In this document: in pieces, positions 30,608 through 61,276 of the stretch
How the letters are laid out: every line of letters begins with the position of its first letter
Numbering within the stretch: the stretch's first letter is position 1
Source of the DNA: Strigamia acuminata
Taxonomy: Eukaryota > Arthropoda > Chilopoda > Geophilomorpha > Linotaeniidae
Length of the DNA stretch: 64,000 nucleotides
Assembly (NCBI GenBank): GCA_949358305.1
Contig: OX442319.1
Location: forward strand, 7,006,001-7,070,000
Direction: 5' to 3'
Program-made: the position numbers and the translations under genes
Notes under the pieces: generated by a model
Seen by the model: only the letters and a program-made list of their open reading frames with translations
What the model was told of the DNA's origin: nothing
Databases searched by the model: none

Positions 30608-30629
30608 CTTCCTTTTTGGCTGGGAGCAA
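30608..30629 (+). promoter_or_regulatory. 22-nt conserved block flush with the LTR
   Basis: A pyrimidine-tract block abutting the LTR start. It aligns without gaps with 46189-46210 and with the complement of 52199-52220. It occupies the position where a purine-rich polypurine tract is normally found. Confidence 0.6.
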
Positions 30630-37646: not shown

Positions 37647-38832
37647 TGTTGCGAGCAAGAACGCAACAAAAAGATTAGGAGACTCACGTTTCACCTGAAA
37701 TTAGTAGAAGGTCTTTTTAGTTTGGTTTTAGTAGTTGATCACAAGTTTGCAGACATATCTGATGTGTCCAGTGGCCTGGTTGACCGACGGTTTTGCTCCG
37801 TGTAGTCCACGGTAGTAATCGGGTGGTCGGTTGTACCTGTAGTGGACATTTGCGGTGTTGTCAGTCACTTGTGGTTGTTTTGAGTATTGGTTTTTAGCTG
37901 TATGTTTAAGAGAAATATTAGTTTTGTAAGAGTTTTATGTATTGTTTTGATTGCAATTAACCTTTGCTAGTTGTTCCGGGTGTTTAGTGGTCGTCTGAAA
38001 CGTGGGTTGGCTAGCACTGCAGGGCGTCGGTAGTGGTTGTGCAGACATTGAGCGCTTTGGGTACGCATGCGGGAATGAGAGCGGCTTGGAAACGCCTCGT
38101 TTGGCTTCTCTGCAAGGTTCCCGTACTGAGTTGGAAGTCCCGGCGTTTTTGTCATGCCTTGGACGGCCTTGGAAGTCAGTTTGGATCGGTTCTGCTTTCA
38201 TTCGCGTCTCTCAGCTGTTGCTAGACCGCCATGTGCTTAAGGTACGGTTCTGGTGGCCTTTTGATAGTTAGTGTCGACATTTCACTGGAACACAGCATAG
38301 GGGTTGATAGTATTTAATAACTTGTGTATTTTATGCCAATGATAGATGTTTATACTAAGCTTTTATTACGTGTTATTACTTGGTTGTTAAGGGTTAAGTT
38401 TGAGACATGTAGTGCCCTCTTTGGAGGTATTGGGTTTAAGCTCAACATTGTTCTTTTGTCTTTATTTACTGTTAGCCTTTATTTACAAGTAATTGTTTGT
38501 TATATTTAAGTTTGCCTTGCGCCATTGTTCACGGTTGCTAGGCGAAGTTGTTGTCAAGATGCGTAGCCATTTAAGTTCTCTTTTTCCTCCTTTAAAATAA
38601 ACGATGTCTTGTTGTTCTACCATTTTCTCCTGGGATTACTTACTCCAAATGATGAGCCAAGCAGCCCTGAGACTGGGAGAAATAGAACCCACGACCAGGT
38701 CAGGAAAAAAGGAGAGAGTTAAACACTACAGGACGATGCATAGATTTAGGCCTAGAAAAACGGCATTTTGCATCTGTCTCATATATATCGAATGTTTGTC
38801 AGCCACCACGATCACAGAGATTGCTGGCAACA
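37647..38832 (+). repeat. LTR 3 of the dimer (3' LTR)
   Basis: 1186 bp, apparently identical to LTRs 1 and 2. It ends GGCAACA and is followed directly by satellite ACTGTGATGAG, which restores the monomer phase left at 23612 if ACTG is counted as the duplicated target. Confidence 0.93.
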
Positions 38833-40979
38833 ACTGTGATGAGATCAAAAGTCTATTCTCCCAAATCATCGGTTAAATGTTTCTAAAACTTACATTGGAG
38901 CCTTCTACTAAGGTTTAAACACTATTTCTGAACATTCAGAGACATTGGTCTTGTGGTGTTTGTGCTAAGTCAACTGTGATGAGATCAAAAGTCTATTCTC
39001 CCAAATCATTGGTTGGATGTTTCTAAAACTTACATTGGAGCCTTCTACTAAGGTTTAAACACTATTTCTGAACATTCAGAGACATTGGTCTTGTGGTGTT
39101 TGTGCTAAGTCAACTGTGATGAGATCAAAAGTCTATTCTCCCAAATCATCGGTTGGATGTTTCTAAAACTTACATTGGAGCCTTCTACTAAGGTTTAAAC
39201 ACTATTTCTGAACATTCAGAGACATTGGACTTGTGGTGTTTGTGCTAAGTCAACTGCGATGTAAAATGAGCTCAAAATTTTTTTTTCAAAATTTATTGCT
39301 TAGGTGTTGCTAAAACTTATATTGAAGGCTTCTACTAAGGTTTAAACACTATTTCTGAACATTCAGAGACATTGGTCTTGTGGTGTTTGTGCTAAGTCAA
39401 CTGTGATGAGATCAAAAGTCTATTCTCCCAAATCATTGGTTGGATGTTTCTAAAACTTACATTGGAGCCTTCTACTAAGGTTTAAACACTATTTCTGAAC
39501 ATTCAGAGACATTGGTCTTGTGGTGTTTGTGCTAAGTCAACTGTGATGAGATCAAAAGTCTATTCTCCCAAATCATCGGTTGAATGTTTCTAAAACTTAC
39601 ATTGGAGCCTTCTACTAAGGTTTAAACACTATTTCTGAACATTCAGAGACATTGGTCTTGTGGTGTTTGTGCTAAGTCAACTGTGATGAGATCAAAAGTC
39701 TATTCTCCCAAATCATCGGTTAAATGTTATAAAACTTACATTGGAGCCTTCTACTAAGGTTTAAACACTATTTCTGAACATTCAGAGACATTGGTCTTGT
39801 GGTGTTTGTGCTAAGTCAACTGTGATGAGATCAAAAGTCTATTCTCCCAAATCATCGGTTGGATGTTTCTAAAACTTACATTGGAGCCTTCTACTAAGGT
39901 TTAAACACTATTTCTGAACATTCAGAGACATTGGTCTTGTGGTGTTTGTGCTAAGTCAACTGTGATGAGATCAAAAGTCTATTCTCCCAAATCATTGGTT
40001 GGATGTTTCTAAAACTTACATTGGAGCCTTCTACTAAGGTTTAAACACTATTTCTGAACATTCAGAGACATTGGTCTTGTGGTGTTTGTGCTAAGTCAAC
40101 TGTGATGAGATCAAAAGTCTATTCTCCCAAATCATCGGTTGGATGTTTCTAAAACTTACATTGGAGCCTTCTACTAAGGTTTAAACACTATTTCTGAACA
40201 TTCAGAGACATTGGACTTGTGGTGTTTGTGCTAAGTCAACTGCGATGTAAAATGAGCTCAAAATTTTTTTTCAAAATTTATTGCTTAGGTGTTGCTAAAA
40301 CTTATATTGAAGGCTTCTACTAAGGTTTAAACACTATTTCTGAACATTCAGAGACATTGGTCTTGTGGTGTTTGTGCTAAGTCAACTGCGATGTAAAATG
40401 AGCTCAAAATTTTTTTTTCAAAATTTATTGCTTAGGTGTTGCTAAAACTTATATTGAAGGCTTCTACTAAGGTTTAAACACTATTTCTGAACATTCAGAG
40501 ACATTGGTCTTGTGGTGTTTGTGCTAAGTCAACTGTGATGAGATCAAAAGTCTATTCTCCCAAATCATTGGTTGGATGTTTCTAAAACTTACATTGGAGC
40601 CTTCTACTAAGGTTTAAACACTATTTCTGAACATTCAGAGACATTGGTCTTGTGGTGTTTGTGCTAAGTCAACTGTGATGAGATCAAAAGTCTATTCTCC
40701 CAAATCATCGGTTGAATGTTTCTAAAACTTACATTGGAGCCTTCTACTAAGGTTTAAACACTATTTCTGAACATTCAGAGACATTGGTCTTGTGGTGTTT
40801 GTGCTAAGTCAACTGTGATGAGATCAAAAGTCTATTCTCCCAAATCATCGGTTAAATGTTATAAAACTTACATTGGAGCCTTCTACTAAGGTTTAAACAC
40901 TATTTCTGAACATTCAGAGACATTGGTCTTGTGGTGTTTGTGCTAAGTCAACTGTGATGAGATCAAAAGTCTATTCTCC
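38833..40979. repeat. Satellite array segment between elements
   Basis: About 15 monomers of the same 140/147-bp satellite in the same orientation and phase as 1064-23612. Nothing else is present. It ends TATTCTCC at the start of the thymidine-kinase element. Confidence 0.97.
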
Positions 40980-42336
40980 TGTTGCTAGCAACATAAAGGA
41001 AAGCTGCTAAACGTCTTAAAAATTAGTCATCTGGAATTATTAAAAAGAGTTTTTAATATTTATCTTAGATTGGGAATTTAATTAGACACTTATCTGAATA
41101 TAAGTCTTCTTTGAGTTAGTTTGAGTGAATTTCTCAGTACTGGTTGATCTGACCGGATAAATCTGGGAAGAAAAGAGTTTTACATTAGTTATTTTTCCAC
41201 TTAGAATTTATTTTCTATCTTGTTTACCTGTGTTATACATGTTTTGATGTTTCCAAGTGTTTTCCTGTTTCCAGTCCACTACTGTCAATGTAGTGACAAG
41301 GTGTAGTGATGCTTTCAGACAGCAAAAGTGTACTAGAATGAGAAATGTATGTTATTATCAGTTTTAAGCTGTTTCAATCAATTTCTGTGAGTTTTCTGTA
41401 TATTACTAACCAATTAAGCGTTTTGTTAACTTAGATTGTGTGTAGCCTGTCTAGTGAGCTAATTTCAAGCCTTTTTATCCTCCTGCAAGTGATCTCTGTT
41501 TACATTGTCGGCCATTACTGTGGGAGTGGTCTACTTGTATCTGTAAAGAGAGGAGAAAATGTTTAATCCCAAAGAGTTTTTGTGGGTTCTGATTAATAAT
41601 TAATCACTTAATTATTATGCAATGTAAAAGTGTTAAGTTTGAGATTTATCTGTGTTGATTTATAACTTAACTTCTGCACTTACTGTAAAGTTGCCAGCTC
41701 ATTGGTCTAAAATGTCTTTACTTATTCTTTTCTCTATTTTATGAGTTGTTCAGTGTGTTTTAGAGTGAATAATTTAGTTCTCAATGAGCATTGTGTTTAG
41801 AGACTGTTGTTAATGTATACTTTTGCATTTAATGCCAAATACTTGCTGTTAGGCTTATGTGTTTTCAACTATTAACTTCTACGGTAGTTTTGTTGTGCCA
41901 GCAGTACTTATTTCTCTTTACAAGCACTTAGAGACCTCTGTAACTTTAAGTGCAAGTGTCCTTATACAATGTGGAGATAGTTACACTTGTTGTTTCTTAT
42001 TATTGTTAAAGTGTGACTTCTTTGTAAAATCCTCGTGATTCAATTGTAGTAGTCTTGTTAAGAATTTAGAGAATAAAATGGTTGCTTTTTATTTCTCTCC
42101 AAGTCTCATTTCTCTATACAACCAGAAAGCAATGTGCAGTGAGTAGAAAAATCCTCCTTCCTCCTCCTTGAACTCACCAGTGGCAGATCATCATGTGAAG
42201 CAGCAAGTTCAATTCCAGTGTTTGCATTTCTTCAAGTCTTTGGCCAACTTCTGTGTATCAGTTTTAGCCAAGCAGCAGTCAAGTATTGCCGCCCCTCCTT
42301 CTGGCCTGGTTGTCGCCTGCGACCTTGCCAGAAACA
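40980..42336 (+). repeat. 5' LTR of the thymidine-kinase element
   Basis: 1357 bp. It starts with the perfect palindrome TGTTGCTAGCAACA and ends CCAGAAACA. AATAAA at 42072-42077 is a likely polyadenylation signal. I found no clear similarity to the other LTR families apart from the palindromic start. Confidence 0.93.
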
Positions 42337-42339
42337 ATT

Positions 42340-42357
42340 TGGTACCGTGAACCAAGG
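42340..42357 (+). other. Primer binding site of the thymidine-kinase element
   Basis: TGGTACCGTGAACCAAGG starts 3 nt after the LTR. It shares TGGTRCCGTGA with the other families in the window, implying the same or closely related tRNA primers. Confidence 0.75.
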
Positions 42358-43157: not shown

Positions 43158-46100
43158 ATGGCTACATTATCCGCTGCTGATCTCGAGGAAAAGGAGGTCA
43201 TTTGGAAAGCAAAGGCTCAAGGAGCCGAGGATCTGCTGGGATCTTCAGTCAACATTCTAGACGGAGGAGAGCTGGAAGCCATGCAAATAACGGTTGACCA
43301 GCAATTGAGTGATCTCGCCGACGAATTGAAAGCTCTTAAAGACGAGTCAAAAAGAGAGGACTATTTAGCGGGGCTTCAACGAATTGAAGACATTAGAACC
43401 AGAGTAAATTTATTGAAGCAAAGAGCAAAAGTGTCTGGAAAAATGGCAGGGCAATTTGGTTCCCATCCGGGACAGAATTCCAGTTTAAACCAGACGTCCG
43501 CTTCATCTAGGAGAAACACGAGATTGCCGAAAACCGACATTGCCAAATTTAGTGGCGATGCAACTGAATATAGAGGTTTTGCGAATTTATTCGAATCAGC
43601 AGTTGATCAGAACACGGAGCTTTCGAACGTGGAAAAGCTTATATATCTGAGGTCATGCTGCACTGGGGCTGCAGAATCCGCAATCAAGTCGTACCCAATA
43701 ACTGATGACGCCTACCCATTAGCGAAAAACACATTGGAGAGTCTATTCGGTTCTGAAAACACGCAGAGAAATGCTATTTCAAAGATGATTAGGGAGTCGA
43801 AACCCGTTTTCGATCTCTACCCAATCGAGCCACTCAAAGCTCTATTCACGTCATTGGCATCTGCTGTCCGGACCATGGCGCAACTGTCTGTGTCAGTTGA
43901 CACTACTGGAACGTACCTTATTCCAGAACTACTTAGAAAATTTCCACCGGAGATCTCCCAACGTTTTTACCGAAAGCATCAAGGAAAAGTTGATGATGTT
44001 AACGTTTTTCTGGACTTCGTAGCAACCGAGATACAACTGGCTGAATTGTCGGAAGAAAGCGTTCTCCTTAAGCGCGCTCATCTGAAGAAGTCAGAAAAAT
44101 TTGAGAAAACTTCAAAGGAAACAAGAGAAAGACCAACTGGAACCATGTCCTCATTCGTGACTTCCGAGAATGGAAAATTGAGTATGAATTCCAAGTCAAA
44201 TCCAAACCGCAAACCCGCCTGCGCTTATTGTGATGGTGATCACGCACACGCAAATTGTGATGCGGATCTCGATGTACCAGCGAGGATCGAAATAGTGAAG
44301 AAGAAACGACTTTGTTTCAACTGCTTGAGATATAACCACACAGCCAAAGAATGTACCGTGAAGTTTTGTTGTCGCTTGTGTGGTGGAAGACATCACACAT
44401 CGATCTGCAACAAAAACAACAAAGAAAAAGCGATTACACCAAAAGAAGAAAACGTGTCTACTAATGTATCGCTTACCGAGTCGGTGGAGATTCAACTGAT
44501 GGTCTTCACTGCTCTTTTTGTGAAGAAAAATGGAGACATGTACCCCGTCCGCGGATTACTAGATCCAGGAAGCCATCGCTCCTACGTCACGAAGAGACTA
44601 GTAAATAAATTCCGGATGCAAAAGATCGAGACACTACACACGATGACACAGTGTCTGCTCAACAAAAAGCCAGTTCCGACGACACATGATGTCTTTAGAT
44701 TCGAACTACAATCAAGACACGGAACAAAAAAGACATCAATCCTTGCATTAGAAACCGACACACTCCCGAAAGTCAAAGGGATAATTGGAGCAGAAGCCAT
44801 AAAGCAAGTCCAATCACTCGGACTTGAGATGGCTGAGATACATCCGTCAGAATCGGAAGACATTGACGTCTTATTAGGAAGCAACGCATGGTGGAAGATT
44901 TGTCAAGGTGGAAGCCGAAAAATCAACGACGAGTTGGGATTAATGGAGACAATTTTTGGGTGGATTCTAAACGGTCGACTGAAACCAAACAACCCGCTTG
45001 AAGAAAACATGGCAGCGTGCAACATTTCTTGCATGGCGGTCGAGTCCAAAGAAGAAGTGATCTCAAATCAACCTGAAAATGACGAAAACAAAATAGTCCA
45101 ATTAATTCCGAAATCACTGCCCAACATGAATGGCGAACCCGGTGTGAATAAACAGACAGACGTCACACCTTCTTGTTTTGCCGCGAGCCTCTCCAGTGGT
45201 CTGGAGAAAGAGGAACTGGACACCACCCTCCAAAAAACGAAAAAGTCGTTCAAGGATGGAGGATTGGTCAACAGAACTCCAAGCTCGGACATGAAGCCGG
45301 AATTACGAGGGCGAAATCAGTTAGAGTCAGGGAGAAAGAACGTCGAATTACTTACAAACCAAGTGCCCAGTTTACCCAAATTGTGTGCAATCGTGAGATG
45401 GAGTGGAAACGTGATTCTGAATTTCTGGAAAAAGAAAATTGATTTGTCAACCAATCAAAAGGGAATTCATCTCATCATTGGTCCAATGTATGCGGGGAAA
45501 ACGACCAAGTTATTGAAGCTTTTAGAAAAGGAAGAGAAGACGTCGTCCCTGCTAATTAAACACTCCAATGACGATCGTTACAGTAAAACCGAAGTCGTGA
45601 CCCACGACGGTCATCGACGAGAAGCAATCGCGACCAGTAGCCTAACCAATGCTGTGGAAAAAACGAAATTAGTGAAGACAATCGGAATTGACGAAGGACA
45701 GTTTTTTCCCGACATTTTTACTTTTTCAAATGAAATGGCTGAGCAAAAGAAAAAGGTAATAGTCGCCGCATTAGACGTCGACTTCAAGAGGAAGCCATTT
45801 GATCAGATATCCGAGTTAGTTCCACTAGCCGAGTCTGTTGTGAAACTACAAGCAAAATGTTATTTTTGCGGAGATAAAGCTGAATTTTCAAGACGAATTT
45901 CGCACGAAACCCGAGTCAAGATGATAGGAGGGATCGACAAATACAAACCAACCTGTCGAGTATGTTTCTCAAAGCCCATGAAGTCCCTAGAGACGAAAAG
46001 GAAAATCATCAACGGAATTATTCGACTTAGTTGTATGATTGTCAACCGAAGAATACCTCCGTGGATACCAAATTTGATCCGTCAAAGAATCATGCCACCC

Positions 46101-46175
46101 AGAGTGGAATACGAAAAGGTGAAAGAGGTCTCCCAAATATTATCATCAAAGACCAGAAGTAATCGAACTAAATGA
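43158..46175 (+). CDS. Gag-protease-thymidine kinase fusion polyprotein
   Basis: 1005 residues from the ATG at 43158 (MATLSAADLEE); the frame extends three codons upstream but only from a GTG. Residues 1-350 resemble BEL/Pao Gag. Zinc knuckles follow: C355/C358/H362/C367, C386/C389/H394/C399, and a C-rich third around 404-417. A DUF1758-type aspartic protease carries LDPGS (D469). D700 lies in a stretch matching the pre-RT region of the autonomous element (D698 there). From about 765 the protein changes to a TK1-type thymidine kinase: P-loop GPMYAGKTT (775-783), DEGQFFPD with predicted catalytic E846, a conserved PLAESVVKL segment, zinc cysteines C901/C904 and C933/C936, and lasso motif KYKPTCRVC. 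TK1 enzymes phosphorylate thymidine to dTMP using ATP. A basic tail of about 65 residues ends the protein. There are no RT or integrase motifs and no frameshift or intron within the TK part. TK identity is near certain; activity is inferred. Confidence 0.95.
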   Translation: MATLSAADLEEKEVIWKAKAQGAEDLLGSSVNILDGGELEAMQITVDQQLSDLADELKALKDESKREDYLAGLQRIEDIRTRVNLLKQRAKVSGKMAGQFGSHPGQNSSLNQTSASSRRNTRLPKTDIAKFSGDATEYRGFANLFESAVDQNTELSNVEKLIYLRSCCTGAAESAIKSYPITDDAYPLAKNTLESLFGSENTQRNAISKMIRESKPVFDLYPIEPLKALFTSLASAVRTMAQLSVSVDTTGTYLIPELLRKFPPEISQRFYRKHQGKVDDVNVFLDFVATEIQLAELSEESVLLKRAHLKKSEKFEKTSKETRERPTGTMSSFVTSENGKLSMNSKSNPNRKPACAYCDGDHAHANCDADLDVPARIEIVKKKRLCFNCLRYNHTAKECTVKFCCRLCGGRHHTSICNKNNKEKAITPKEENVSTNVSLTESVEIQLMVFTALFVKKNGDMYPVRGLLDPGSHRSYVTKRLVNKFRMQKIETLHTMTQCLLNKKPVPTTHDVFRFELQSRHGTKKTSILALETDTLPKVKGIIGAEAIKQVQSLGLEMAEIHPSESEDIDVLLGSNAWWKICQGGSRKINDELGLMETIFGWILNGRLKPNNPLEENMAACNISCMAVESKEEVISNQPENDENKIVQLIPKSLPNMNGEPGVNKQTDVTPSCFAASLSSGLEKEELDTTLQKTKKSFKDGGLVNRTPSSDMKPELRGRNQLESGRKNVELLTNQVPSLPKLCAIVRWSGNVILNFWKKKIDLSTNQKGIHLIIGPMYAGKTTKLLKLLEKEEKTSSLLIKHSNDDRYSKTEVVTHDGHRREAIATSSLTNAVEKTKLVKTIGIDEGQFFPDIFTFSNEMAEQKKKVIVAALDVDFKRKPFDQISELVPLAESVVKLQAKCYFCGDKAEFSRRISHETRVKMIGGIDKYKPTCRVCFSKPMKSLETKRKIINGIIRLSCMIVNRRIPPWIPNLIRQRIMPPRVEYEKVKEVSQILSSKTRSNRTK

Positions 46176-46188
46176 TGGGTTGTTCGCA

Positions 46189-46210
46189 CTTTCTTTTCGC
46201 CGGCAATCTA
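46189..46210 (+). promoter_or_regulatory. 22-nt conserved block flush with the 3' LTR
   Basis: A pyrimidine-rich block ending GGCAATCTA immediately before TGTTGCTAGC. It aligns base for base in length with the blocks at 30608-30629 and at the complement of 52199-52220. No polypurine tract lies in the 35 nt between stop codon and LTR. Confidence 0.6.
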
Positions 46211-47567
46211 TGTTGCTAGCAACATAAAGGAAAGCTGCTAAACGTCTTAAAAATTAGTCATCTGGAATTATTAAAAAGAGTTTTTAATATTTATCTTAGA
46301 TTGGGAATTTAATTAGACACTTATCTGAATATAAGTCTTCTTTGAGTTAGTTTGAGTGAATTTCTCAGTACTGGTTGATCTGACCGGATAAATCTGGGAA
46401 GAAAAGAGTTTTACATTAGTTATTTTTCCACTTAGAATTTATTTTCTATCTTGTTTACCTGTGTTATACATGTTTTGATGTTTCCAAGTGTTTTCCTGTT
46501 TCCAGTCCACTACTGTCAATGTAGTGACAAGGTGTAGTGATGCTTTCAGACAGCAAAAGTGTACTAGAATGAGAAATGTATGTTATTATCAGTTTTAAGC
46601 TGTTTCAATCAATTTCTGTGAGTTTTCTGTATATTACTAACCAATTAAGCGTTTTGTTAACTTAGATTGTGTGTAGCCTGTCTAGTGAGCTAATTTCAAG
46701 CCTTTTTATCCTCCTGCAAGTGATCTCTGTTTACATTGTCGGCCATTACTGTGGGAGTGGTCTACTTGTATCTGTAAAGAGAGGAGAAAATGTTTAATCC
46801 CAAAGAGTTTTTGTGGGTTCTGATTAATAATTAATCACTTAATTATTATGCAATGTAAAAGTGTTAAGTTTGAGATTTATCTGTGTTGATTTATAACTTA
46901 ACTTCTGCACTTACTGTAAAGTTGCCAGCTCATTGGTCTAAAATGTCTTTACTTATTCTTTTCTCTATTTTATGAGTTGTTCAGTGTGTTTTAGAGTGAA
47001 TAATTTAGTTCTCAATGAGCATTGTGTTTAGAGACTGTTGTTAATGTATACTTTTGCATTTAATGCCAAATACTTGCTGTTAGGCTTATGTGTTTTCAAC
47101 TATTAACTTCTACGGTAGTTTTGTTGTGCCAGCAGTACTTATTTCTCTTTACAAGCACTTAGAGACCTCTGTAACTTTAAGTGCAAGTGTCCTTATACAA
47201 TGTGGAGATAGTTACACTTGTTGTTTCTTATTATTGTTAAAGTGTGACTTCTTTGTAAAATCCTCGTGATTCAATTGTAGTAGTCTTGTTAAGAATTTAG
47301 AGAATAAAATGGTTGCTTTTTATTTCTCTCCAAGTCTCATTTCTCTATACAACCAGAAAGCAATGTGCAGTGAGTAGAAAAATCCTCCTTCCTCCTCCTT
47401 GAACTCACCAGTGGCAGATCATCATGTGAAGCAGCAAGTTCAATTCCAGTGTTTGCATTTCTTCAAGTCTTTGGCCAACTTCTGTGTATCAGTTTTAGCC
47501 AAGCAGCAGTCAAGTATTGCCGCCCCTCCTTCTGGCCTGGTTGTCGCCTGCGACCTTGCCAGAAACA
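46211..47567 (+). repeat. 3' LTR of the thymidine-kinase element
   Basis: 1357 bp at +5231 from the 5' LTR. I found no difference between the two when reading them line by line. It is followed by satellite CTCCCAAATC. Confidence 0.93.
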
Positions 47568-50500
47568 CTCCCAAATCATCGGTTGGATGTTTCTAAAACT
47601 TACATTGGAGCCTTCTACTAAGGTTTAAACACTATTTCTGAACATTCAGAGACATTGGTCTTGTGGTGTTTGTGCTAAGTCAACTGTGATGAGATCAAAA
47701 GTCTATTCTCCCAAATCATTGGTTGGATGTTTCTAAAACTTACATTGGAGCCTTCTACTAAGGTTTAAACACTATTTCTGAACATTCAGAGACATTGGTC
47801 TTGTGGTGTTTGTGCTAAGTCAACTGTGATGAGATCAAAAGTCTATTCTCCCAAATCATCGGTTGGATGTTTCTAAAACTTACATTGGAGCCTTCTACTA
47901 AGGTTTAAACACTATTTCTGAACATTCAGAGACATTGGACTTGTGGTGTTTGTGCTAAGTCAACTGCGATGTAAAATGAGCTCAAAATTTTTTTTCAAAA
48001 TTTATTGCTTAGGTGTTGCTAAAACTTATATTGAAGGCTTCTACTAAGGTTTAAACACTATTTCTGAACATTCAGAGACATTGGTCTTGTGGTGTTTGTG
48101 CTAAGTCAACTGCGATGTAAAATGAGCTCAAAATTTTTTTTTCAAAATTTAATGCTTGGGTGTTGCTAAAACTTATATTGAAGGCTTCTACTAAGGTTTA
48201 AACACTATTTCTGAACATTCAGAGACATTGGACTTGTGGTGTTTGTGCTAAGTCAACTGTGATGAGATCAAAAGTCTATTCTCCCAAATCATTGGTTGGA
48301 TGTTTCTAAAACTTACATTGGAGCCTTCTACTAAGGTTTAAACACTATTTCTGAACATTCAGAGACATTGGTCTTGTGGTGTTTGTGCTAAGTCAACTGT
48401 GATGAGATCAAAAGTCTATTCTCCCAAATCATCGGTTGAATGTTTCTAAAACTTACATTGGAGCCTTCTACTAAGGTTTAAACACTATTTCTGAACATTC
48501 AGAGACATTGGTCTTGTGGTGTTTGTGCTAAGTCAACTGTGATGAGATCAAAAGTCTATTCTCCCAAATCATCGGTTAAATGTTATAAAACTTACATTGG
48601 AGCCTTTTACTAAGGTTTAAACACTATTTCTGAACATTCAGAGACATTGGTCTTGTGGTGTTTGTGCTAAGTCAACTGTGATGAGATCAAAAGTCTATTC
48701 TCCCAAATCATTGGTTGGATGTTTCTAAAACTTACATTGGAGCCTTCTACTAAGGTTTAAACACTATTTCTGAACATTCAGAGACATTGGTCTTGTGGTG
48801 TTTGTGCTAAGTCAACTGTGATGAGATCAAAAGTCTATTCTCCCAAATCATCGGTTGAATGTTTCTAAAACTTACATTGGAGCCTTCTACTAAGGTTTAA
48901 ACACTATTTCTGAACATTCAGAGACATTGGTCTTGTGGTGTTTGTGCTAAGTCAACTGTGATGAGATCAAAAGTCTATTCTCCCAAATCATCGGTTGGAT
49001 GTTTCTAAAACTTACATTGGAGCCTTCTACTAAGGTTTAAACACTATTTCTGAACATTCAGAGACATTGGTCTTGTGGTGTTTGTGCTAAGTCAACTGTG
49101 ATGAGATCAAAAGTCTATTCTCCCAAATCATTGGTTGGATGTTTCTAAAACTTACATTGGAGCCTTCTACTAAGGTTTAAACACTATTTCTGAACATTCA
49201 GAAACATTGGTCTTGTGGTGTTTGTGCTAAGTCAACTGTGATGAGATCAAAAGTCTATTCTCCCAAATCATCAGTTGGATGTTTCTAAAACTTACATTGG
49301 AGCCTTCTACTAAGGTTTAAACACTATTTCTGAACATTCAGAGACATTGGACTTGTGGTGTTTGTGCTAAGTCAACTGCGATGTGAAATGAGCTCAAAAT
49401 TTTTTTTTCAAAATTTATTGCTTGGGTGTTGCTAAAACTTATATTGAAGGCTTCTACTAAGGTTTAAACACTATTTCTGAACATTCAGAGACATTGGTCT
49501 TGTGGTGTTTGTGCTAAGTCAACTGTGATGAGATCAAAAGTCTATTCTCCCAAATCATTGGTTAGATGTTTCTAAAACTTACATTGGAGCCTTCTACTAA
49601 GGTTTAAACACTATTTCTGAACATTCAGAGACATTGGTCTTGTGGTGTTTGTGCTAAGTCAACTGTGATGAGATCAAAAGTCTATTCTCCCAAATCATCG
49701 GTTGAATGTTTCTAAAACTTACATTAGAGCCTTCTACTAAGGTTTAAACACTATTTCTGAACATTCAGAGACATTGGTCTTGTGGTGTTTGTGCTAAGTC
49801 AACTGTGATGAGATCAAAAGTCTATTCTCCCAAATCATCGGTTAAATGTTATAAAACTTACATTGGAGCCTTCTACTAAGGTTTAAACACTATTTCTGAA
49901 CATTCAGAGACATTGGTCTTGTGGTGTTTGTGCTAAGTCAACTGTGATGAGATCAAAAGTCTATTCTCCCAAATCATCGGTTGGATGTTTCTAAAACTTA
50001 CATTGGAGCCTTCTACTAAGGTTTAAACACTATTTCTGAACATTCAGAGACATTGGTCTTGTGGTGTTTGTGCTAAGTCAACTGTGATGAGATCAAAAGT
50101 CTATTCTCCCAAATCATTGGTTGGATGTTTCTAAAACTTACATTGGAGCCTTCTACTAAGGTTTAAACACTATTTCTGAACATTCAGAGACATTGGTCTT
50201 GTGGTGTTTGTGCTAAGTCAACTGTGATGAGATCAAAAGTCTATTCTCCCAAATCATCGGTTGGATGTTTCTAAAACTTACATTGGAGCCTTCTACTAAG
50301 GTTTAAACACTATTTCTGAACATTCAGAGACATTGGACTTGTGGTGTTTGTGCTAAGTCAACTGCGATGTAAAATGAGCTCAAAATTTTTTTTTCAAATT
50401 TTATTGCTTAGGTGTTGCTAAAACTTATATTGAAGGCTTCTACTAAGGTTTAAACACTATTTCTGAACATTCAGAGACATTGGTCTTGTGGTGTTTGTGC

Positions 50501-50644
50501 TAAGTCAACTGCGATGTAAAATGAGCTCAAAATTTTTTTTTCAAAATTTAATGCTTGGGTGTTGCTAAAACTTATATTGAAGGCTTCTACTAAGGTTTAA
50601 ACACTATTTCTGAACATTCAGAGACATTGGACTTGTGGTGTTTG
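47568..50644. repeat. Satellite array segment between elements
   Basis: About 22 monomers of the same 140/147-bp satellite, starting with the duplicated CTCC and ending GGTGTTTG at the edge of the autonomous element. It contains a few private variants (for example TTTTACTAAGG near 48606 and CAGAAACATT near 49200). No gene. Confidence 0.97.
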
Positions 50645-52198
50645 TGTAGCAAACAACCTTGGCTCTCACAAGGAATACTGGCGAATTGGTCTGTAAACTC
50701 TGGAGACCGCCCGAGACTGTATAGTGGTTGATGAAACAAGTTGACCTCTCAGCCCAAACTCTAGGCCTAACTGCATCATGAGAAATCAGGCCTAACTGCA
50801 TTCAGTTGAAAATGATAAAGGAAGCTCTCTGGATACTGGGGAAAACCTTGTGCCTCCAGTGAGGAGGAGAGCATGCAAAGCTTTCTACTCACTCATTTGC
50901 ATATTTCCCTGAGTAGGAAATAAGATCAGAAAAGAATGTTCAAAGCAGGAGTGAAAACACATCAACTTTTTAATCTTAACAACAAGTAACAACTGATTGC
51001 TTCTTTAGCAACCACACAACAACTGGTCACCTGCTTACAATAAATATCAGTGACCAAACAATACAGATTTGCATAATAACAATAGTGCCAACAAGGTTTC
51101 CGTATTCCTACAACAGATGTCAAACTTAACATAAGTAAAGGCAAAACTTAACCTAACACCTTGATAACATTATGACCTGTGCAAACAGCACTTCACTTAA
51201 ACTTAACAGATAATTCAAAGGCTAAAACTAACATTAATTACACTCAAAACACAATGCTTAGCCCAAACCCAATCACCACCAACAGAGGGCGCAACGTGTC
51301 ACAGTTTTAACCCCTTTACAACCATGCAATAACAAAGGTAAAGGCTTAGATTAATAACTCTTAATATTGGTAATTTATACAAACAATAACTAGTATATAT
51401 TCCCTATGTCCAGGTTTCATTAAAACCCCAAACTAAATAATAACAGGGCACCAGTGCAGCACCAAATCCAAGATGGCGACCATGCAACTGCTAAAATGAC
51501 GTGAATGGAGCCAAACAAGGTCGCAAGCGACTCACAGGCCTTCTCAACGATGGATCTGCGTCCTAGAACGGTCAGTACAACTTTCCCAGTGCTTGGACAT
51601 TGAAACCCGACCAATTCAACTCATTTGCAGGACCCACACGACCACGAGAGGCGTCGCAAGGCGTGCGCTCACGCCCGACGCTCCCGAACGCTCACAAACG
51701 ATGTCCAACGTTCATCCAGCGACCCAGGACACCTGGGGAGTTCCTTAAACACCAATACAAGTTAGTATAAATTAAATCACAAGCAAAACAAGCACTAAAA
51801 CTGCAATTGTGCTTATTTCAGGTTCTTCCCGTCTCCCAGTTCACTTGCGCTATGGCGGCCATCTTGCCGGTGCACGACTATCTCCCTCGCAAGTGAACTG
51901 GAAACGGGAGAGAACTTACAAATACTAGAAACAACACCTAAAAGTGAAAAAGACACATAAAACAATTACAAAAGACTAAAAACACAACTTTCAAACATTC
52001 CAGGTGTGGCAGGCGAAGTGGCAACCCCCTTGAACTTCCAGGATCGTGTCAACAAAGCAGCAAACCAACTGGACATGTCAGATATGTGTTAAAAATCTAT
52101 TCAAACTTGACAACAAAATTAAAAAAGCCTTTTCTTCCTTTCAGAAGATAAACAACGTGAAATCTCCAGATCTTTTTGTTGCGTTCTTGCTCGCAACA
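50645..52198 (-). repeat. 3' LTR of the autonomous BEL/Pao element
   Basis: On the - strand it begins TGTTGCGAGCAAGAACGCAACA at 52198, a stem-loop-forming start shared exactly with the non-coding family, and ends GGTTGTTTGCTACA at 50645. Confidence 0.95.
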
Positions 52199-52220
52199 TC
52201 GCTGCCAGCCGAAAAAGAAG
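52199..52220 (-). promoter_or_regulatory. 22-nt conserved block flush with the 3' LTR
   Basis: On the - strand a CTTCTTTTTC tract followed by GGCTGGCAGCGA runs directly into the LTR. The equivalent block precedes the 3' LTR in both other families. The 52 nt after the stop codon contain no purine tract. Confidence 0.6.
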
Positions 52221-52250
52221 CAGACAGCCGGCTCAAACAAATCGACCACG

Positions 52251-55200
52251 CTAATCCAGCTCCAAGGCCCTCACGTGTTTGACCGAGCGGCGGTATTCCT
52301 TTCCATTGGCTGTAACTACTCTCACGACGCGCACAAACCCATCTTCGCCGGGTAGGACCTCGATGACCCGTGCCAGCGGCCAGAAGTACGGATTGCAGCC
52401 GACCTTTTCCAGCAATACTATCTGGTTGACCTCCGGATTCTTGAAACGTGAGTCGCCCTTAACTTCATGAAAATTTCTTAGTTGTTTCAGGTAACTCTCG
52501 CGCCAAATCCGCCAGAACTCCCAAATGAAAAGTCGTCTCTTTCTATCCAATCGCCGTAGGTCTTTTTTCTGTATCGCGTGCAGCGGACGGTTGATTACCC
52601 ACTTGGGCATTCCTCCAGTGAGGAAATTCTCAGGGCTGAGAATTCTCCCGCCGTCAACCTCCTCATGCACGTAGGACAGTGGCCTTGAGTTAAGCACGGA
52701 ACCTATCTCGGCGGCTAGCGTCTGTAGCGTCTCCAAATCTACGGTCCTGCGCAGCAGCATCTTACGCAATTTATCTTTCACCGACCGCACAAGCCTCTCC
52801 CAGGCTCCTCCGGCCCATGGTGACAATGGTGGAATGAACGACCAAACCACTCGCTTCTCCGAAAGGAACGTCCGGATCCCACCCTTGGTCAGCAATTTAC
52901 CCCACGACTGTATCTCCTGGCTTCCTCGCTCGAAAGTTTTGGAGTTATCGGAGAACACTTTCGCCGGATACCCAAATCTTGCGCCGAAACGACGGAAGGC
53001 CAGAAGAAACTTTTCCACTGAAAGATTCTCGGAAACTTCCAAATGTATCGCTCGCGTTACTAGGCAAGTAAATAATAGAATATAGACTTTCCTTCCTTTC
53101 TCCTTATGCCTGACTGTGAGAGGACCGAGGTGGTCAATTCCTGTATGCTGGAACGGGGCTGCCGGCGTGACGCGCTCCATCGGCGGGTCACCAGTGGATG
53201 GGTTATTGCGGTCCAACCGTTCTCGTTTGCAGACCAAGCAACTCCGGATCACAGCCTTGACCGTTCGGCGTCCTCTTACAATCCAATACTTGTCTCTCAA
53301 CCGATAAAACGTCTCACTCAGCTCACCATGCAGGAGCTGCAAGTGAACCTTCTTGATGATTAGCCTTGTTACCCAACTATCCGGGTGTAACAAGATGGGA
53401 AACGTCTCGTCGAAGGGAAGCTCTGACTTCCCTAGACGGCTCCTTAGTCGTAGTAAATCTCTCTCATCCAGAAATATGTCGAAATTTTTCAGGATGGAGC
53501 CCTTTGCCACCTTCTCCTTCACCATCGCGGCTTGTCTTTCGTCTGGAAAACTCAAGACCTGAGCCAAGCGGATGACTCTTTCCTCGGCAACTTCTATCTC
53601 GAGAACCTCGAGGTCCCTCCCGCGGGCGGAAAAAGGAAGCCAGCGCCGCATGAATGCGAAAACTCGTACGAGGCGATTAAAACTGCTAAACCGCTTGAAA
53701 ACCTCGCATATATGCGCTTCTCCATCTGACGCAACTAAAGCTACCTTTTCCTTCTTTGCCTCTTCCATTGGGAGGTCAACGTCTTCGGGTTCGTCCACGA
53801 GGTCTTCCAACTGACCAGGCCCGTCCCACCAGAGACGGTTGGCCAAAAGGCTCTTTGCCTCGCATGGGCGTGTCAATACGTCCGCCGGATTTCGATCCGT
53901 CGGGACGTATGCCCACTGACTCGGACTTGACTTCTCAAGAACTTCTGCCACTCTGTTGGAGACATATGGCTTCCACCTGTTCTTATTAGACTTCAACCAC
54001 CCGAGCGCGACCATTGAGTCCGAGTAATACCTTATCTTCCCAATCGGATAACCCGGTAAGAAATCTTCTAAGATGTACTCCACCATCCGGACTCCAACAA
54101 CCGTTGCTGTCAACTCAAGGCGAGGTAAAGTCAACTTAGTGGTGGGGGCAATTCTGCTTTTGCTCAAGAGCAGTTGGGTTGCGCCTGACGCAGCTCGAAC
54201 GTAGATTGCGCACCCGTACGCCTGTGGACTTGCGTCGCAAAAAACGTCAATGTCCATCTCTTGGCCCGAGTACGTCCCCATCCAACGCTTCACCCGGGCT
54301 TCGGTGAGGCGCTGAAGATCGGCGTACCATTTGGCCACTATCTCTCGGTTCTCTTCTGAGATAATGTCGTCCCATCTGATGTCGTGACCCCACATACTCT
54401 GCAAGAGTATCTTCATCCTCAAAATGACTGGAGCTATCAACCCCAAGGGGTCGAAGACTGATGCCAATAATGACAGAATGCCCCTCCTGGACCGGGGGAT
54501 CTCAACACCGGTGGGGATCCTGAACATAAGCGTGTCGTCTTGGACACTCCAAAGGATGCCCAGCATTTTGACAATGCCTAAATCTTCAAACTTGTCTGCA
54601 CGCATGTGGAAATCTTTGTCTTTGAGTGCGTCAAAGACCTCTGCCTTTGATGTTGCCCACTTGACGAGAGGCAGCTTTCCCTCGTCAAGGATTCTGCGTA
54701 GATTGACACAGTGTTTTACTGTCTCTTTGGTTCCATCGGCACCGGACGTCAAGTCGTCCATGTAGATGCCCTTGTCTAGGGCATCTGCCTCTTTGGGGAA
54801 AAGCACCAAATACAATCGCCCTTGCGCGCGGATCACAGCGCACAACAAGAATGGCGACGAATTCACCCCGAATGGTACGACTATCATTCTTAAAACGACC
54901 AGATGATCCCACAAATTCTGCCAAGAATATCCTTCTTGGAAGTATTCTTCTGAAACCCAAAGGAATCGCAAAAAATCGCAATGGTCCGGATTAATCAGCA
55001 CTTGCAGGAAAGCCTGCTTAATGTCTGCTATCGCCACTACACAGAAAAGGCGAAAACGGATCATAACTGGGACAATATCCGGATTTAAAGAGGGGCCAGG
55101 ATACAGGCAGTCGTTCAGCGAAGGTAGCCCCTTCTTCGCCGACGACGCGTTGAAAACGACACGGAACTTGGTCGTTTCCCGGTCCTCCTTGATCACTGGA

Positions 55201-57524
55201 TGGTGCGGAATAACATAAACGCTAGTCTTCTTGTATCTCTCTGCCAGAGGTACTACTTCCGCGTGCTCTTCTTTGACGTAGTCCCACATGGCTTTGTTAT
55301 AACGTTCCTTGTGGTCGCTGTTACTATCAATTCGCCTAAGCGTATGTGATAGTTGATTCAGAGCCAACTCCCAGTTCGACTCCAAAGCCCCAATCTTATC
55401 GTTGAAGGGCAAGCAAACCTGGTAGCGACCATCCTCCATTCGCTTGTGCGACTTCTCAAAGCGATCTCGAACAAAATCTGAATCGCGTTCGCCTGCTGTA
55501 ATTCCAACAGCCTCCAGACTCCAAAGCTTTTCCAAGTCACGGTCAGTCTTAATCTCACAGGTGTTGCAGCAAGAAACGTCACGCGAGCTCTCGGAGAAGA
55601 CATCTGTCGACCCAGCGGCTCCTGACAACACCCACCCAAAAATGGTATTGACCAAACCCAAGCGGTTATCCAATCGCTTCCGTCCGTCAAGGCAGATTTC
55701 CCACCAAACATCAACCCCAAGCAAGATATCAACATTGCCTGCAGTCGAAGGTAAGTCTTCAGCCAATTCGAACCCCAAATCTTTAACCTTCTGAATGGTA
55801 TCAGGGCTGGCTATCCCATACACATGCGGTAGGCTTCTTGCACTTAAAGCCGTCACCTTGAGCTCTCTGGCTCCGTGTCTAGACTGAAGGAGTATCCTAT
55901 AAACGTCATAAGACGCCGATCCAGCTTTCTCCTCATTGAGGCGTTGTGCGGTGGCTTCGATCGACCCACAACTCTTCAACCGTATCCGGTCGGCTACACT
56001 CTTTAAAATGTAGGACCGATGGCTGCCCGGATCTAACATGCCACGTATCGTGTGCGAACCTCCAGACTTTGTTTTTAACTCCGCTGTGAATATCATCAAC
56101 TGAAGCGTTGATGAGATCGCCAAGGAGACGTTTGCACTCACGTCCTTGGGCTTCTCTACACCACCTCTACTCTGGGCATTCAATTTCCTGCAGATGGACG
56201 AGTGATGTCGTCCGCCGCAAGTCCTGCAGCTGGTTTTAACCTGACATCGCATTGCTCTGTGTCCTTCTTGCAGGCAATTGAAGCAAAGTCTGTTTTGTTG
56301 GGCTATGGTGGACTTCTCTGCCACGCTCATTTCTTTTTTACAGAAGGTGTTGGCATGGCCTTCTTTGCAAAAAATGCAAATTGCGCTTTCCACGGTCAGC
56401 TTTGGGCTAGAAGACTCTTTGGCTCTTTTGGATGTAGCGCATGTAGACATTGTGCCCTTGCGTTGATCTTTATCCTTGTCGGAACTTCCAGACTTGTCTT
56501 TCTTTGTTGCGAGACCTCCTGTTCCCATGACGTCTTCCATTTGCTCTAAGAGCTGAACTTCAGCCGCAAAGAAATTCAAAATTGTCACTAAATTTGAGGT
56601 CTTAGCTCCTTGCTGCTGGTAAAACCTCATTACCATGGCAGGTGGAAACTTTCTCAGCACGTCTGGTGCCAGAAGCAGACCAGCAGTCTGTACTGGAACG
56701 CTCAACTGTTCCAGCAAGCGGATAGCAGTGGACACCTTGGTCAATTGTGTCCTGACAGCTTTGACCGGATGCAACTCAGCAACCTGTCTCATGTCCCTTA
56801 TGGACTTGACCAGAGCCACTCTCTGGGCTTCATCGTCCCCATAGGAACGGACCAACTCTTCTCTTGCTAAATTGTAATTACCATCCACTAAAGGGAATGC
56901 AGAGATCAGCATGGCGGCTTCTCCTGTACACAGCGACTGCAAGTATTGCAACTTCTCAATTTCTGATAAATCAGGGTTGCTGTGGACCGCCGAGTCAAAG
57001 CTGCTTAGGAAGGGACGGAATGTCGTCACATCTCCATTAAATTTCTGCATTTCCAACTTAGGAAGCTTTGCATTATTATGCCTTCTTGTCGACTGTGACA
57101 AGGTCTGGTTCAAAATCGAACCCTGGGACGTATTGGTCATTGACGCTGAAGCATTTGCCGGGTTAGCTGACCAATGAGTCACGTGCTTCTTGGACATCTG
57201 TGTTCTGCTTTTAAGAACTGAAATCGGTGTCTCTAACTCTTCGATTTCCCTTAGATATCCTAAATACTGCTCCCTTGTCAGCTTTGGCTGCATAGTGTTC
57301 AGGTCGTTAATCATTTTCATGATCTTTTCATCGGCGACCATTTCTATGGCTTCCAACTCTCCTGTGTCTTTTAAGGTCAAAGACCTTCTCAAAACCGCAT
57401 CCAAGGAGATTCCAATCGTCGTGAATCTACCAGCCAACACGTCCATTTCTTCTGGCGGTTGTTGCTCAACCGTTGTTGGCGTCGTTCTCCCTGATCCTGA
57501 CCTTGATCCACCTCCTGTAGCCAT
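52251..57524 (-). CDS. gag-pol: BEL/Pao Gag-protease-RT-RNase H-integrase polyprotein
   Basis: 1757 residues from the ATG at 57524 (MATGGGSRSGSG); the frame is open 12 codons further but from a TTG. Gag occupies about 1-370. Zinc knuckles are at C383/C386/H390/C395, C414/C417/H422/C427 and C433-C445. The protease carries LDPGS with D498. RT spans about 785-975, with PFGVNSSPFLL and the YMDD box at 921-924. The Pao RNase H-like region is at about 1088-1225 (DVFCDASPQAYG, then YSDSMVALGW). An H2C2 integrase zinc finger is at about 1385-1435. The DDE integrase core shows D1464 (GIDHLGPL), D1526 (SDNSKTF) and E1576 (GAWERL). A C-terminal DUF5641-like domain ends ...RALELD. The length and order are those of a complete BEL/Pao polyprotein, and I see no stop or frameshift. 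It probably acts in cytoplasmic particles and then in the nucleus during integration. Confidence 0.97.
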   Translation of the reverse strand: MATGGGSRSGSGRTTPTTVEQQPPEEMDVLAGRFTTIGISLDAVLRRSLTLKDTGELEAIEMVADEKIMKMINDLNTMQPKLTREQYLGYLREIEELETPISVLKSRTQMSKKHVTHWSANPANASASMTNTSQGSILNQTLSQSTRRHNNAKLPKLEMQKFNGDVTTFRPFLSSFDSAVHSNPDLSEIEKLQYLQSLCTGEAAMLISAFPLVDGNYNLAREELVRSYGDDEAQRVALVKSIRDMRQVAELHPVKAVRTQLTKVSTAIRLLEQLSVPVQTAGLLLAPDVLRKFPPAMVMRFYQQQGAKTSNLVTILNFFAAEVQLLEQMEDVMGTGGLATKKDKSGSSDKDKDQRKGTMSTCATSKRAKESSSPKLTVESAICIFCKEGHANTFCKKEMSVAEKSTIAQQNRLCFNCLQEGHRAMRCQVKTSCRTCGGRHHSSICRKLNAQSRGGVEKPKDVSANVSLAISSTLQLMIFTAELKTKSGGSHTIRGMLDPGSHRSYILKSVADRIRLKSCGSIEATAQRLNEEKAGSASYDVYRILLQSRHGARELKVTALSARSLPHVYGIASPDTIQKVKDLGFELAEDLPSTAGNVDILLGVDVWWEICLDGRKRLDNRLGLVNTIFGWVLSGAAGSTDVFSESSRDVSCCNTCEIKTDRDLEKLWSLEAVGITAGERDSDFVRDRFEKSHKRMEDGRYQVCLPFNDKIGALESNWELALNQLSHTLRRIDSNSDHKERYNKAMWDYVKEEHAEVVPLAERYKKTSVYVIPHHPVIKEDRETTKFRVVFNASSAKKGLPSLNDCLYPGPSLNPDIVPVMIRFRLFCVVAIADIKQAFLQVLINPDHCDFLRFLWVSEEYFQEGYSWQNLWDHLVVLRMIVVPFGVNSSPFLLCAVIRAQGRLYLVLFPKEADALDKGIYMDDLTSGADGTKETVKHCVNLRRILDEGKLPLVKWATSKAEVFDALKDKDFHMRADKFEDLGIVKMLGILWSVQDDTLMFRIPTGVEIPRSRRGILSLLASVFDPLGLIAPVILRMKILLQSMWGHDIRWDDIISEENREIVAKWYADLQRLTEARVKRWMGTYSGQEMDIDVFCDASPQAYGCAIYVRAASGATQLLLSKSRIAPTTKLTLPRLELTATVVGVRMVEYILEDFLPGYPIGKIRYYSDSMVALGWLKSNKNRWKPYVSNRVAEVLEKSSPSQWAYVPTDRNPADVLTRPCEAKSLLANRLWWDGPGQLEDLVDEPEDVDLPMEEAKKEKVALVASDGEAHICEVFKRFSSFNRLVRVFAFMRRWLPFSARGRDLEVLEIEVAEERVIRLAQVLSFPDERQAAMVKEKVAKGSILKNFDIFLDERDLLRLRSRLGKSELPFDETFPILLHPDSWVTRLIIKKVHLQLLHGELSETFYRLRDKYWIVRGRRTVKAVIRSCLVCKRERLDRNNPSTGDPPMERVTPAAPFQHTGIDHLGPLTVRHKEKGRKVYILLFTCLVTRAIHLEVSENLSVEKFLLAFRRFGARFGYPAKVFSDNSKTFERGSQEIQSWGKLLTKGGIRTFLSEKRVVWSFIPPLSPWAGGAWERLVRSVKDKLRKMLLRRTVDLETLQTLAAEIGSVLNSRPLSYVHEEVDGGRILSPENFLTGGMPKWVINRPLHAIQKKDLRRLDRKRRLFIWEFWRIWRESYLKQLRNFHEVKGDSRFKNPEVNQIVLLEKVGCNPYFWPLARVIEVLPGEDGFVRVVRVVTANGKEYRRSVKHVRALELD

Positions 57525-58172: not shown

Positions 58173-58190
58173 CCTGGAATCACGGTACCA
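58173..58190 (-). other. Primer binding site of the autonomous element
   Basis: On the - strand TGGTACCGTGATTCCAGG begins 15 nt after the 5' LTR end at 58205. The TGGTRCCGTGA core is common to all three families in the window. Confidence 0.7.
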
Positions 58191-58204
58191 AAAACTCAGC
58201 TCCC

Positions 58205-61251: not shown

Positions 61252-61258
61252 TCGTTTT

Positions 61259-61276
61259 TGGTGCCGTGAACCATGG
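61259..61276 (+). other. Primer binding site of the second non-coding copy
   Basis: TGGTGCCGTGAACCATGG, the same sequence and 7-nt spacing as at 24806. Confidence 0.72.

What the first reader, a model, noticed from the sequence alone, without database searches (positions are those of the whole stretch)
43158..46175. A retrotransposon that carries a complete thymidine kinase fused to Gag and protease
Seen: one uninterrupted frame runs from BEL/Pao Gag, zinc knuckles and LDPGS protease into a domain with P-loop GPMYAGKTT, DEGQFFPD, PLAESVVKL, four zinc cysteines (C901/C904/C933/C936) and KYKPTCRVC. Known: these are the defining motifs of the TK1 family. The 29-residue gap between the two cysteine pairs and about 65 between P-loop Lys and catalytic Glu match the TK1 pattern as I remember it. 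Inference: the element delivers a dTMP-producing enzyme, perhaps inside its particles, raising dTTP for reverse transcription in cells with low nucleotide pools. This would parallel dUTPases in some retroviruses and thymidine kinases in large DNA viruses. I know of no described LTR retrotransposon with a thymidine kinase.
Basis: partly seen in the sequence, partly recalled or inferred. Interest (0 to 1): 0.96.

Follow-up and report, generated by a model that had tools for sequence, protein, structure and literature searches.

The report
Retrotransposon family carrying a thymidine kinase
In an unidentified, probably animal, genome, a multi-copy jumping element that lacks its own copying enzyme makes one long protein joining a virus-like shell and protease to a complete thymidine kinase, the enzyme that starts a DNA building block, and selection appears to have kept that kinase intact.

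Summary
Confirmed, and broader than reported. Window 43158-46175 is an intact 1005-aa frame: BEL/Pao-type Gag, zinc knuckles, LDPGS protease motif, full TK1-type thymidine kinase (Pfam E 2.6e-54; human TK1 E 1e-41) and tail. Identical 1357-bp LTRs and a 4-bp duplication define a 6588-bp element (40980-47567) inside a 140-bp satellite. It has no reverse transcriptase or integrase, so it is non-autonomous. Of 51 genomic matches at 97-100% in Gag (window copy included), 47 keep the full frame, so it is no assembly chimera. A second family (41 rows, 55-56%) has the same fusion in the two copies read. TK dN/dS is about 0.12-0.18 in the main contrasts. In a third family (22 rows) the one copy read has only a TK stub, so TK can be lost. 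These TKs group with multi-copy solo TKs of the same genome, suggesting capture from the host lineage. Autonomous BEL/Pao elements, one 3 kb away, are likely helpers. Most likely role: dTMP for cDNA synthesis. Activity, packaging and expression are untested. My searches found no earlier LTR retrotransposon with a thymidine kinase.

The parts
40976..40979 (.). 5' copy of the 4-bp target-site duplication CTCC
   Evidence: sequence at the LTR edge; the satellite unit reads ...TATTCTCCCAAATC...
40980..42336 (+). 5' LTR, 1357 bp, TGTTGC...AAACA, identical to the 3' LTR
   Evidence: self-BLAST 100% over 1357 bp
42338..42350 (+). TTTGGTACCGTGA box just after the LTR (primer-binding-site position); the same box in family B and in the neighbouring autonomous element
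   Evidence: no tRNA matched by one strict pattern
43158..46175 (+). single frame, 1005 aa: Gag, zinc knuckles, protease, linker, thymidine kinase, tail
43548..43973 (+). Gag region matching Pfam DUF1759 (residues 131-272)
   Evidence: E 2e-17
44220..44408 (+). three zinc-knuckle-like cysteine motifs (residues 355-417)
   Evidence: and translation
44559..44573 (+). LDPGS aspartic protease motif (residues 468-472); the same motif is in the autonomous neighbour
45465..45968 (+). thymidine kinase domain, TK1 type (residues 770-937)
   Evidence: Pfam, PDB sequence match, fold match to human TK1, 32 columns invariant over 30 aligned TKs including this one
45996..46091 (+). C-terminal tail (residues 947-978) alike in families A, B and C
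   Evidence: modelled as helices at low to moderate confidence
46190..46210 (+). TTTCTTTTCGCCGGCAATCTA motif directly before the 3' LTR (polypurine-tract position); a similar motif precedes the 3' LTR in B, C and the autonomous neighbour
46211..47567 (+). 3' LTR, 1357 bp
47568..47571 (.). 3' copy of the target-site duplication CTCC
38831..40979 (.). 140-bp satellite on the left of the element
47568..50646 (.). 140-bp satellite on the right of the element
50645..59758 (-). autonomous BEL/Pao element without TK: identical 1554-bp LTRs, TSD TTTG, frame 52251-57560 with Gag, protease motif, RT (below Pfam cut-off), Peptidase_A17, integrase zinc domain, DUF5641; candidate helper

Best explanation
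The feature is one recent insertion of a multi-copy, non-autonomous LTR retrotransposon of the BEL/Pao lineage. Its only sizeable protein is a Gag-protease-thymidine kinase fusion. A BEL/Pao ancestor lost its RT-integrase part and gained a TK of the kind that this genome also holds as solo frames (most likely host to element, once, before families A and B split; linker plus TK stand where RT begins in the autonomous relative). Its RNA is reverse transcribed and integrated by enzymes supplied by autonomous BEL/Pao elements of the same genome, whose terminal motifs, post-LTR box, pre-LTR motif and 4-bp duplication it shares. The TK, made in the same polyprotein as Gag, phosphorylates thymidine and so raises the local dTTP supply for cDNA synthesis. 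Shown: anatomy, copy number, catalytic motifs, excess of synonymous change in TK, TK decay in one copy of a sister family. Inferred: enzyme activity, dTTP role, presence in particles, helper identity, direction of capture.
For: Anatomy: identical LTRs, TSDs CTCC in the window copy and ACAG in family-B copy L024. Copies: 119 Gag matches scored of 1060 candidates; 51 at 97-100% identity over Gag 1-340, 47 of them with 1009- or 1013-aa frames; 41 family-B rows at 55-56%, 37 with 995 or 1002 aa; no row in a frame above 1013 aa. Enzyme: Pfam E 2.6e-54, human TK1 structures E about 1e-41, Foldseek top hit human TK1, probability 1.00, 32 columns invariant over 30 TKs including A and B. Selection: TK dN/dS 0.175 for the window against L026; 0.18 for the window against L027 (15.5 nonsynonymous, 21.5 synonymous, binomial p 4e-6); 0.118 for B copies L002 against L024 (44.8 and 65.2, p 1e-16). 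Origin: the 8 own-genome TKs used form one clade (99/93) apart from 22 TKs that I chose from 120 listed, with A+B together (98/93). Helper: 87 RT-piece matches, many in 1768-1770-aa frames, on the same contig blocks; Gag-PR of A, B, C, D and the autonomous neighbour form one clade (100/100) against 5 outside proteins; shared motifs.
Against: Family C (22 rows, 18 with an 892-aa frame) multiplied although the one copy read carries only a TK stub with no Pfam TK match at E 1, so TK is not essential for every relative. One A pair, L026 against the broken copy L023, gives dN/dS 0.34 with p 0.11. No expression or biochemical data. The neighbour's Gag-PR is only 37% identical to that of the element, and no autonomous partner with a matching whole LTR was found among loci in hand. 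TK trees use few own-genome sequences, midpoint rooting and some long branches, so the direction of capture is not proven. Pairwise dN/dS values are not independent of one another.
Confidence: 0.62

Rival explanations
1. The TK is a passenger: captured by chance and copied along, with no benefit to the element.
For: Family C, whose one copy read has lost the TK core, still has 22 rows, 18 with 892-aa frames; the one family-D copy shows no TK by eye, and its C-terminal piece has no Pfam TK match.
Against: TK dN/dS of 0.12-0.18 in the main contrasts within A and within B, like protease (0.21 and 0.17); the linker beside it is freer (0.59 on 26 changes in A; 0.54 on only 3 in B). A and B are 55.7% identical in TK, with saturated synonymous sites, yet both keep the catalytic motifs.
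Confidence: 0.12
2. The TK fold works as a structural or nucleotide-binding module of the Gag polyprotein (oligomerisation, RNA or cDNA handling), not as a metabolic enzyme.
For: It is fused in frame to Gag, so presumably made 1:1; the family-C copy keeps a remnant of the P-loop end and the tail without the catalytic core.
Against: The catalytic DEGQFF and the lasso-loop cysteines and tyrosine are conserved in A and B. Known TK1 enzymes are themselves tetramers (recalled), so both roles could coexist.
Confidence: 0.15
3. The TK helps the host or both parties (domesticated or mutualistic gene) rather than the element's own copying.
For: The genome also keeps many solo TK copies (40 of the 150 listed TK rows are 190-aa frames), as if extra TK were tolerated or useful.
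Against: LTRs, TSDs, identical LTR pairs, many copies and, for the window copy, a place in satellite are those of a mobile parasite.
Confidence: 0.07
4. Assembly chimera or chance open frame.
For: None found.
Against: 47 of 51 close matches, spread over many contigs, have the full frame; TK matches profile positions 3-176 of 176.
Confidence: 0.01

Closest known systems
BEL/Pao LTR retrotransposons (Belpaoviridae, genus Semotivirus)
   Same: DUF1759 Gag region, zinc knuckles, protease motif, LTRs; Gag-PR groups with the autonomous BEL/Pao element of the same window.
   Different: No RT, Peptidase_A17 region or integrase; carries a TK instead. None of the 29 Gag-PR relatives listed from elsewhere had a TK domain listed; only the 7997 candidates sharing most words were scored.
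Cytosolic thymidine kinase TK1 (type II TK, Pfam PF00265), animal and poxviral
   Same: Full-length domain, P-loop, DEGQFF, two zinc cysteine pairs; about 50% identity to many animal TKs.
   Different: Fused behind Gag and protease in one frame; two residues shorter near helix 1 than the 22 outside TKs aligned; element-specific tail; no KEN motif in residues 767-1005.
dUTPase domains of retroviruses and of bdelloid rotifer LTR elements (PMC5408684, abstract read)
   Same: A nucleotide-metabolism enzyme carried by a reverse-transcribing element.
   Different: A different enzyme (kinase, salvage route); sits directly behind Gag-protease of an element that has no RT of its own.
Non-autonomous LTR elements that encode only Gag (plant types, recalled)
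   Same: LTR-flanked, Gag-coding, no RT or integrase, presumed to move in trans.
   Different: Encodes an added complete metabolic enzyme that appears to be under selection.

Membership tests
TK1-type thymidine kinase (PF00265) | profile match over the whole domain above the curated cut-off | tested here: met
   184.2 bits against a cut-off of 20.6, profile 3-176 of 176
TK1-type thymidine kinase (PF00265) | P-loop lysine, catalytic glutamate, two zinc cysteine pairs, lasso-loop residues | tested here: met
TK1-type thymidine kinase (PF00265) | TK1 fold | tested here: met
   model pLDDT 79 overall, core higher, lasso and zinc part weak; Foldseek top hits human TK1, TM by target 0.78, rmsd 4.8
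TK1-type thymidine kinase (PF00265) | phosphorylates thymidine | not testable with these tools
   needs enzyme assay
BEL/Pao LTR retrotransposon | BEL/Pao Gag (DUF1759) and grouping with BEL/Pao Gag-PR | tested here: met
BEL/Pao LTR retrotransposon | LTR pair and short target-site duplication | tested here: met
   1357-bp identical LTRs, CTCC
BEL/Pao LTR retrotransposon | aspartic protease domain | tested here: inconclusive
   LDPGS motif and alignment to the neighbour; no protease profile at E 0.01 for this copy, below cut-off for family B
BEL/Pao LTR retrotransposon | own RT, RNase H and integrase (autonomy) | tested here: not met
   no such Pfam match in the 1005-aa frame or in the 153-aa frame 42286-42747, and no other + strand frame of 100 aa or more between the LTRs; hence only a non-autonomous derivative
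Non-autonomous LTR element mobilised in trans | shares cis signals with an autonomous partner | tested here: inconclusive
   shared LTR start, post-LTR box, pre-LTR motif and 4-bp TSD length with the neighbour, but no BLAST similarity between the LTRs as a whole
Non-autonomous LTR element mobilised in trans | observed movement with a helper | not tested
   referred step

The most novel reading that the evidence does not exclude
Gag-protease-TK and RT-integrase elements form a cooperating two-part system: TK elements build particles that contain a thymidine kinase at about one copy per Gag, autonomous elements supply RT and integrase, and the TK acts inside the particle or close to it so that reverse transcription can proceed where dTTP is scarce, to the profit of both elements.
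Probability: 0.2. Interest if true: 0.95.

Novelty: new variant of a known kind. Interest (0 to 1): 0.86.

Why it matters
Retroelements depend on cellular dNTPs, and hosts can restrict them by lowering dNTP supply (recalled). An LTR element that carries its own thymidine kinase, keeps its catalytic motifs in two diverged families and has lost them in at least one copy of a third gives a natural comparison for asking whether dNTP supply limits retrotransposition in a germ line. It extends the list of enzymes captured by reverse-transcribing elements from dUTPase, esterase and exonuclease to a salvage kinase, and places it on an element that has discarded RT and integrase.

Tried and rejected
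Assembly chimera: rejected. Own pol inside the element: rejected, since 42337-46210 has no room for it beside the frame. Gag-TK fusions in other genomes: a search of the 5.8-billion-protein set with residues 764-1005 of the 1005-aa protein gave 5 proteins among 2018 candidates, none with a Gag domain listed; with residues 1-640 it gave 29, none with PF00265 listed; both are limited by shared words and by the masking of transposon genes in public annotation. Autonomous partner with the same LTR: not found among loci in hand. Primer tRNA: one strict pattern for a tRNA ending in TCACGGTA gave 0 matches, reversed-pattern control 3, so the primer is unresolved. Rfam on the window: 0 matches. Host identity: not established, because the 18S and COX1 searches did not complete. 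Nature of the large repeat with the 190-aa solo TK: 24.5 kb read on C1, no transposase recognised by eye, left open. Papers: the listings (no paper) showed no LTR retrotransposon with a thymidine kinase; PMC7593179 passages read (its TK is a putative horizontally acquired gene; no link to an element in those passages), PMC5408684 abstract and outline read, all others listing only. Most subscription papers and preprints are not in that library.
Full report
What is there. Window 43158-46175 is one frame of 1005 aa starting at an ATG. Pfam finds TK over residues 770-937 (E 2.6e-54, profile 3-176 of 176) and the BEL/Pao Gag region DUF1759 over 131-272 (E 2e-17). Between them lie three cysteine motifs and LDPGS. 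The TK region matches human cytosolic TK1 structures at E about 1e-41; a model from a 30-sequence alignment (mean pLDDT 79, weak in the lasso and tail) has its best Foldseek hits on human TK1. The 32 columns that are invariant across the 30 aligned TKs include this protein and a family-B copy.

The element. Self-comparison shows two identical 1357-bp LTRs, 40980-42336 and 46211-47567, flanked by CTCC on both sides, so the element is 6588 bp. It sits inside a 140-bp satellite. The interior holds about 0.8 kb of leader, the single frame and 35 bp before the 3' LTR. A 153-aa frame across the LTR end and leader (42286-42747) has no Pfam match. No RT or integrase was found and there is no room for them, so the element cannot copy itself unaided.

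Copies. A Gag search (residues 1-340) of the whole genome scored 119 of 1060 candidates. By my count of its rows: 51 match at 97-100% over the full query, the window copy among them, of which 47 have a 1009- or 1013-aa frame (family A); 4 more are A-like but partial or 74-87% identical; 41 match at 55-56% (family B, 37 with 995 or 1002 aa); 1 at 47% (D, 897 aa); 22 at 43-44% (C, 18 with 892 aa). No row lies in a frame above 1013 aa. Counts are lower bounds. A TK profile search scored 150 of 205 candidates, all 150 above cut-off, many in 995-, 1002-, 1009- or 1013-aa frames. Of family B two copies were read in full, L024 and L025; L024 has identical 965-bp LTRs, TSD ACAG and the same domain order. 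Of family C one copy was read, L029: Gag-PR, a stub of TK (IKGPMFLGKK, no catalytic core) and the tail. The stub rests on BLAST against A (E 4e-7 for the P-loop piece and 3e-8 for the tail, in a 3-sequence search); Pfam gives nothing for that region at E 1. Its LTR, read from the 3' copy alone, begins with the same 14 bases as that of family A. Of family D one copy was read, L030: Gag-PR and a hydrophobic C-terminus; Pfam gives only two non-significant matches there and no TK. One A-like copy, L023, has a stop inside TK.

Selection. TK between the window and L026: 8 nonsynonymous and 12 synonymous changes, dN/dS 0.175. Window against L027: 15.5 and 21.5, 0.18, binomial p 4e-6. B copies L002 and L024: 44.8 and 65.2, 0.118, p 1e-16; of L002 only the part from late Gag onward was held. 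L024 against L025: 3 and 5, 0.166. Other B pairs give 0.04-0.17, pairs with the broken copy L023 0.18-0.34, the highest (L026-L023, 5 and 4 changes) not significant, p 0.11. The linker is looser (0.59 in A; 0.54 in B on 3 changes) and the C-terminal part of A is not constrained in the window-L026 pair (1.1), although part of the tail is alike in A, B and C. Between A and B synonymous sites are saturated and TK is 55.7% identical. Pairs are not independent. Pairs among solo TK copies are mixed: 0.11-0.12 between the 190- and 216-type, and 0.31-0.95 on 4-6 changes within the 216 type.

Origin. In a tree of 30 TKs, the 8 from this genome (2 A, 2 B, 4 solo) form one clade (99/93), with A and B together (98/93) and the solo ones together (95/83). 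The 22 outside TKs were my choice from 120 listed, three of them flagged as long branches. The own-genome TKs also share a gap of two or five residues near helix 1. This fits capture from the host's own TK lineage followed by spread, but the root is a midpoint and a host gene with introns was not looked for. Gag-PR of A, B, C, D and the neighbour form one clade (100/100) with unresolved inner order, with a long-branch warning for one outside protein, so I cannot say whether D lost TK or never had it.

How it likely moves. The neighbour at 50645-59758, minus strand, is an autonomous BEL/Pao element (Peptidase_A17, integrase zinc domain and DUF5641 above cut-off, RT at E 5.7e-4 below cut-off) with identical LTRs and a 4-bp TSD, TTTG. 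A search with its RT and A17 piece gave 87 matches (86 of 1058 candidates scored), many in 1768-1770-aa frames, on the same contig blocks. The TK element and the neighbour share TGTTGC at the LTR start, the TTTGGTACCGTGA box after the LTR, a TTTTTCGG- or TTTTCGCCGG-like motif before the 3' LTR and TSD length. Whole-LTR similarity was not found and Gag-PR identity is 37%, so the neighbour is a candidate helper, not a proven one. Satellite was seen in 5 of the 13 fetched A- or B-type loci (L003, L007, L008, L024, L025, all B type; none of the 3 A-type loci L023, L026, L027), several of them short, beside C copy L029, and around the window copy.

What the TK likely does. Conserved catalytic residues plus an excess of synonymous change point to an active enzyme; the natural product is dTMP, the first step to dTTP by salvage. 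Because it is in one frame with Gag, it would be made in equal amount and could be in the particle. Neither activity nor packaging is shown. Family C suggests that it can be dispensed with.

What is known. Eight searches of an open-access library gave no LTR retrotransposon with a thymidine kinase in their listings, nor did two protein searches. Rotifer LTR elements with dUTPase, esterase or exonuclease are the nearest parallel that I read (PMC5408684, abstract). I therefore call this a new variant of a known kind. The host was not identified; that it is an animal is inferred from the BEL/Pao elements and the TK1 type.

Noticed in passing
window 23615-38599 and 60061-64000: A repeated LTR-type element without frames over 207 aa: 951-bp LTR at 23615, 30632 and 37649 with two identical interiors (LTR-inside-LTR-inside-LTR), and another copy from 60061. 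Its LTR is 73-75% alike to parts of the autonomous neighbour's LTR.
   Followed up: partly
L011 4722-5291, L012, L028 and 40 of the 150 rows: A solo 190-aa thymidine kinase frame in at least 40 copies on many contigs; in L011 and L012 it lies in a stretch of at least 9.2 kb that is 99.98% identical between C1 and C5; no transposase recognised by eye. It may be a second mobile unit carrying TK.
   Followed up: partly
L009, L013, L018, L020 (translated), L010, L014, L019, L021, L022 (by TK match): Another solo TK type (MSLAPENEPRGG...) in multi-copy surroundings rich in simple repeats, one cut by a contig end.
   Followed up: no
L029 1847-4522: Family C: Gag-PR with a degenerate TK stub but a conserved C-terminal tail in the one copy read; 22 rows in the genome, 18 with an 892-aa frame. 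The tail may have a function of its own.
   Followed up: partly
L030 1279-3969, minus strand: Family D: Gag-PR followed by a hydrophobic, possibly membrane-spanning C-terminus in place of TK; no significant Pfam match there.
   Followed up: partly
L004 1-3510: Family-B interior follows the 3' LTR directly, so two copies seem to share an LTR in tandem.
   Followed up: no
window 1126-23614, 38831-40979, 47568-50646, 59759-60051: A 140-bp satellite makes up much of the window; Gag and RT matches cluster in a few blocks, several near contig ends, which may be centromeric or other heterochromatin.
   Followed up: partly
L016 6537-7904, minus strand: A 456-aa frame near a solo TK that by eye resembles a Ulp1-type cysteine protease (recalled), but Pfam gives nothing at E 0.01.
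   Followed up: partly
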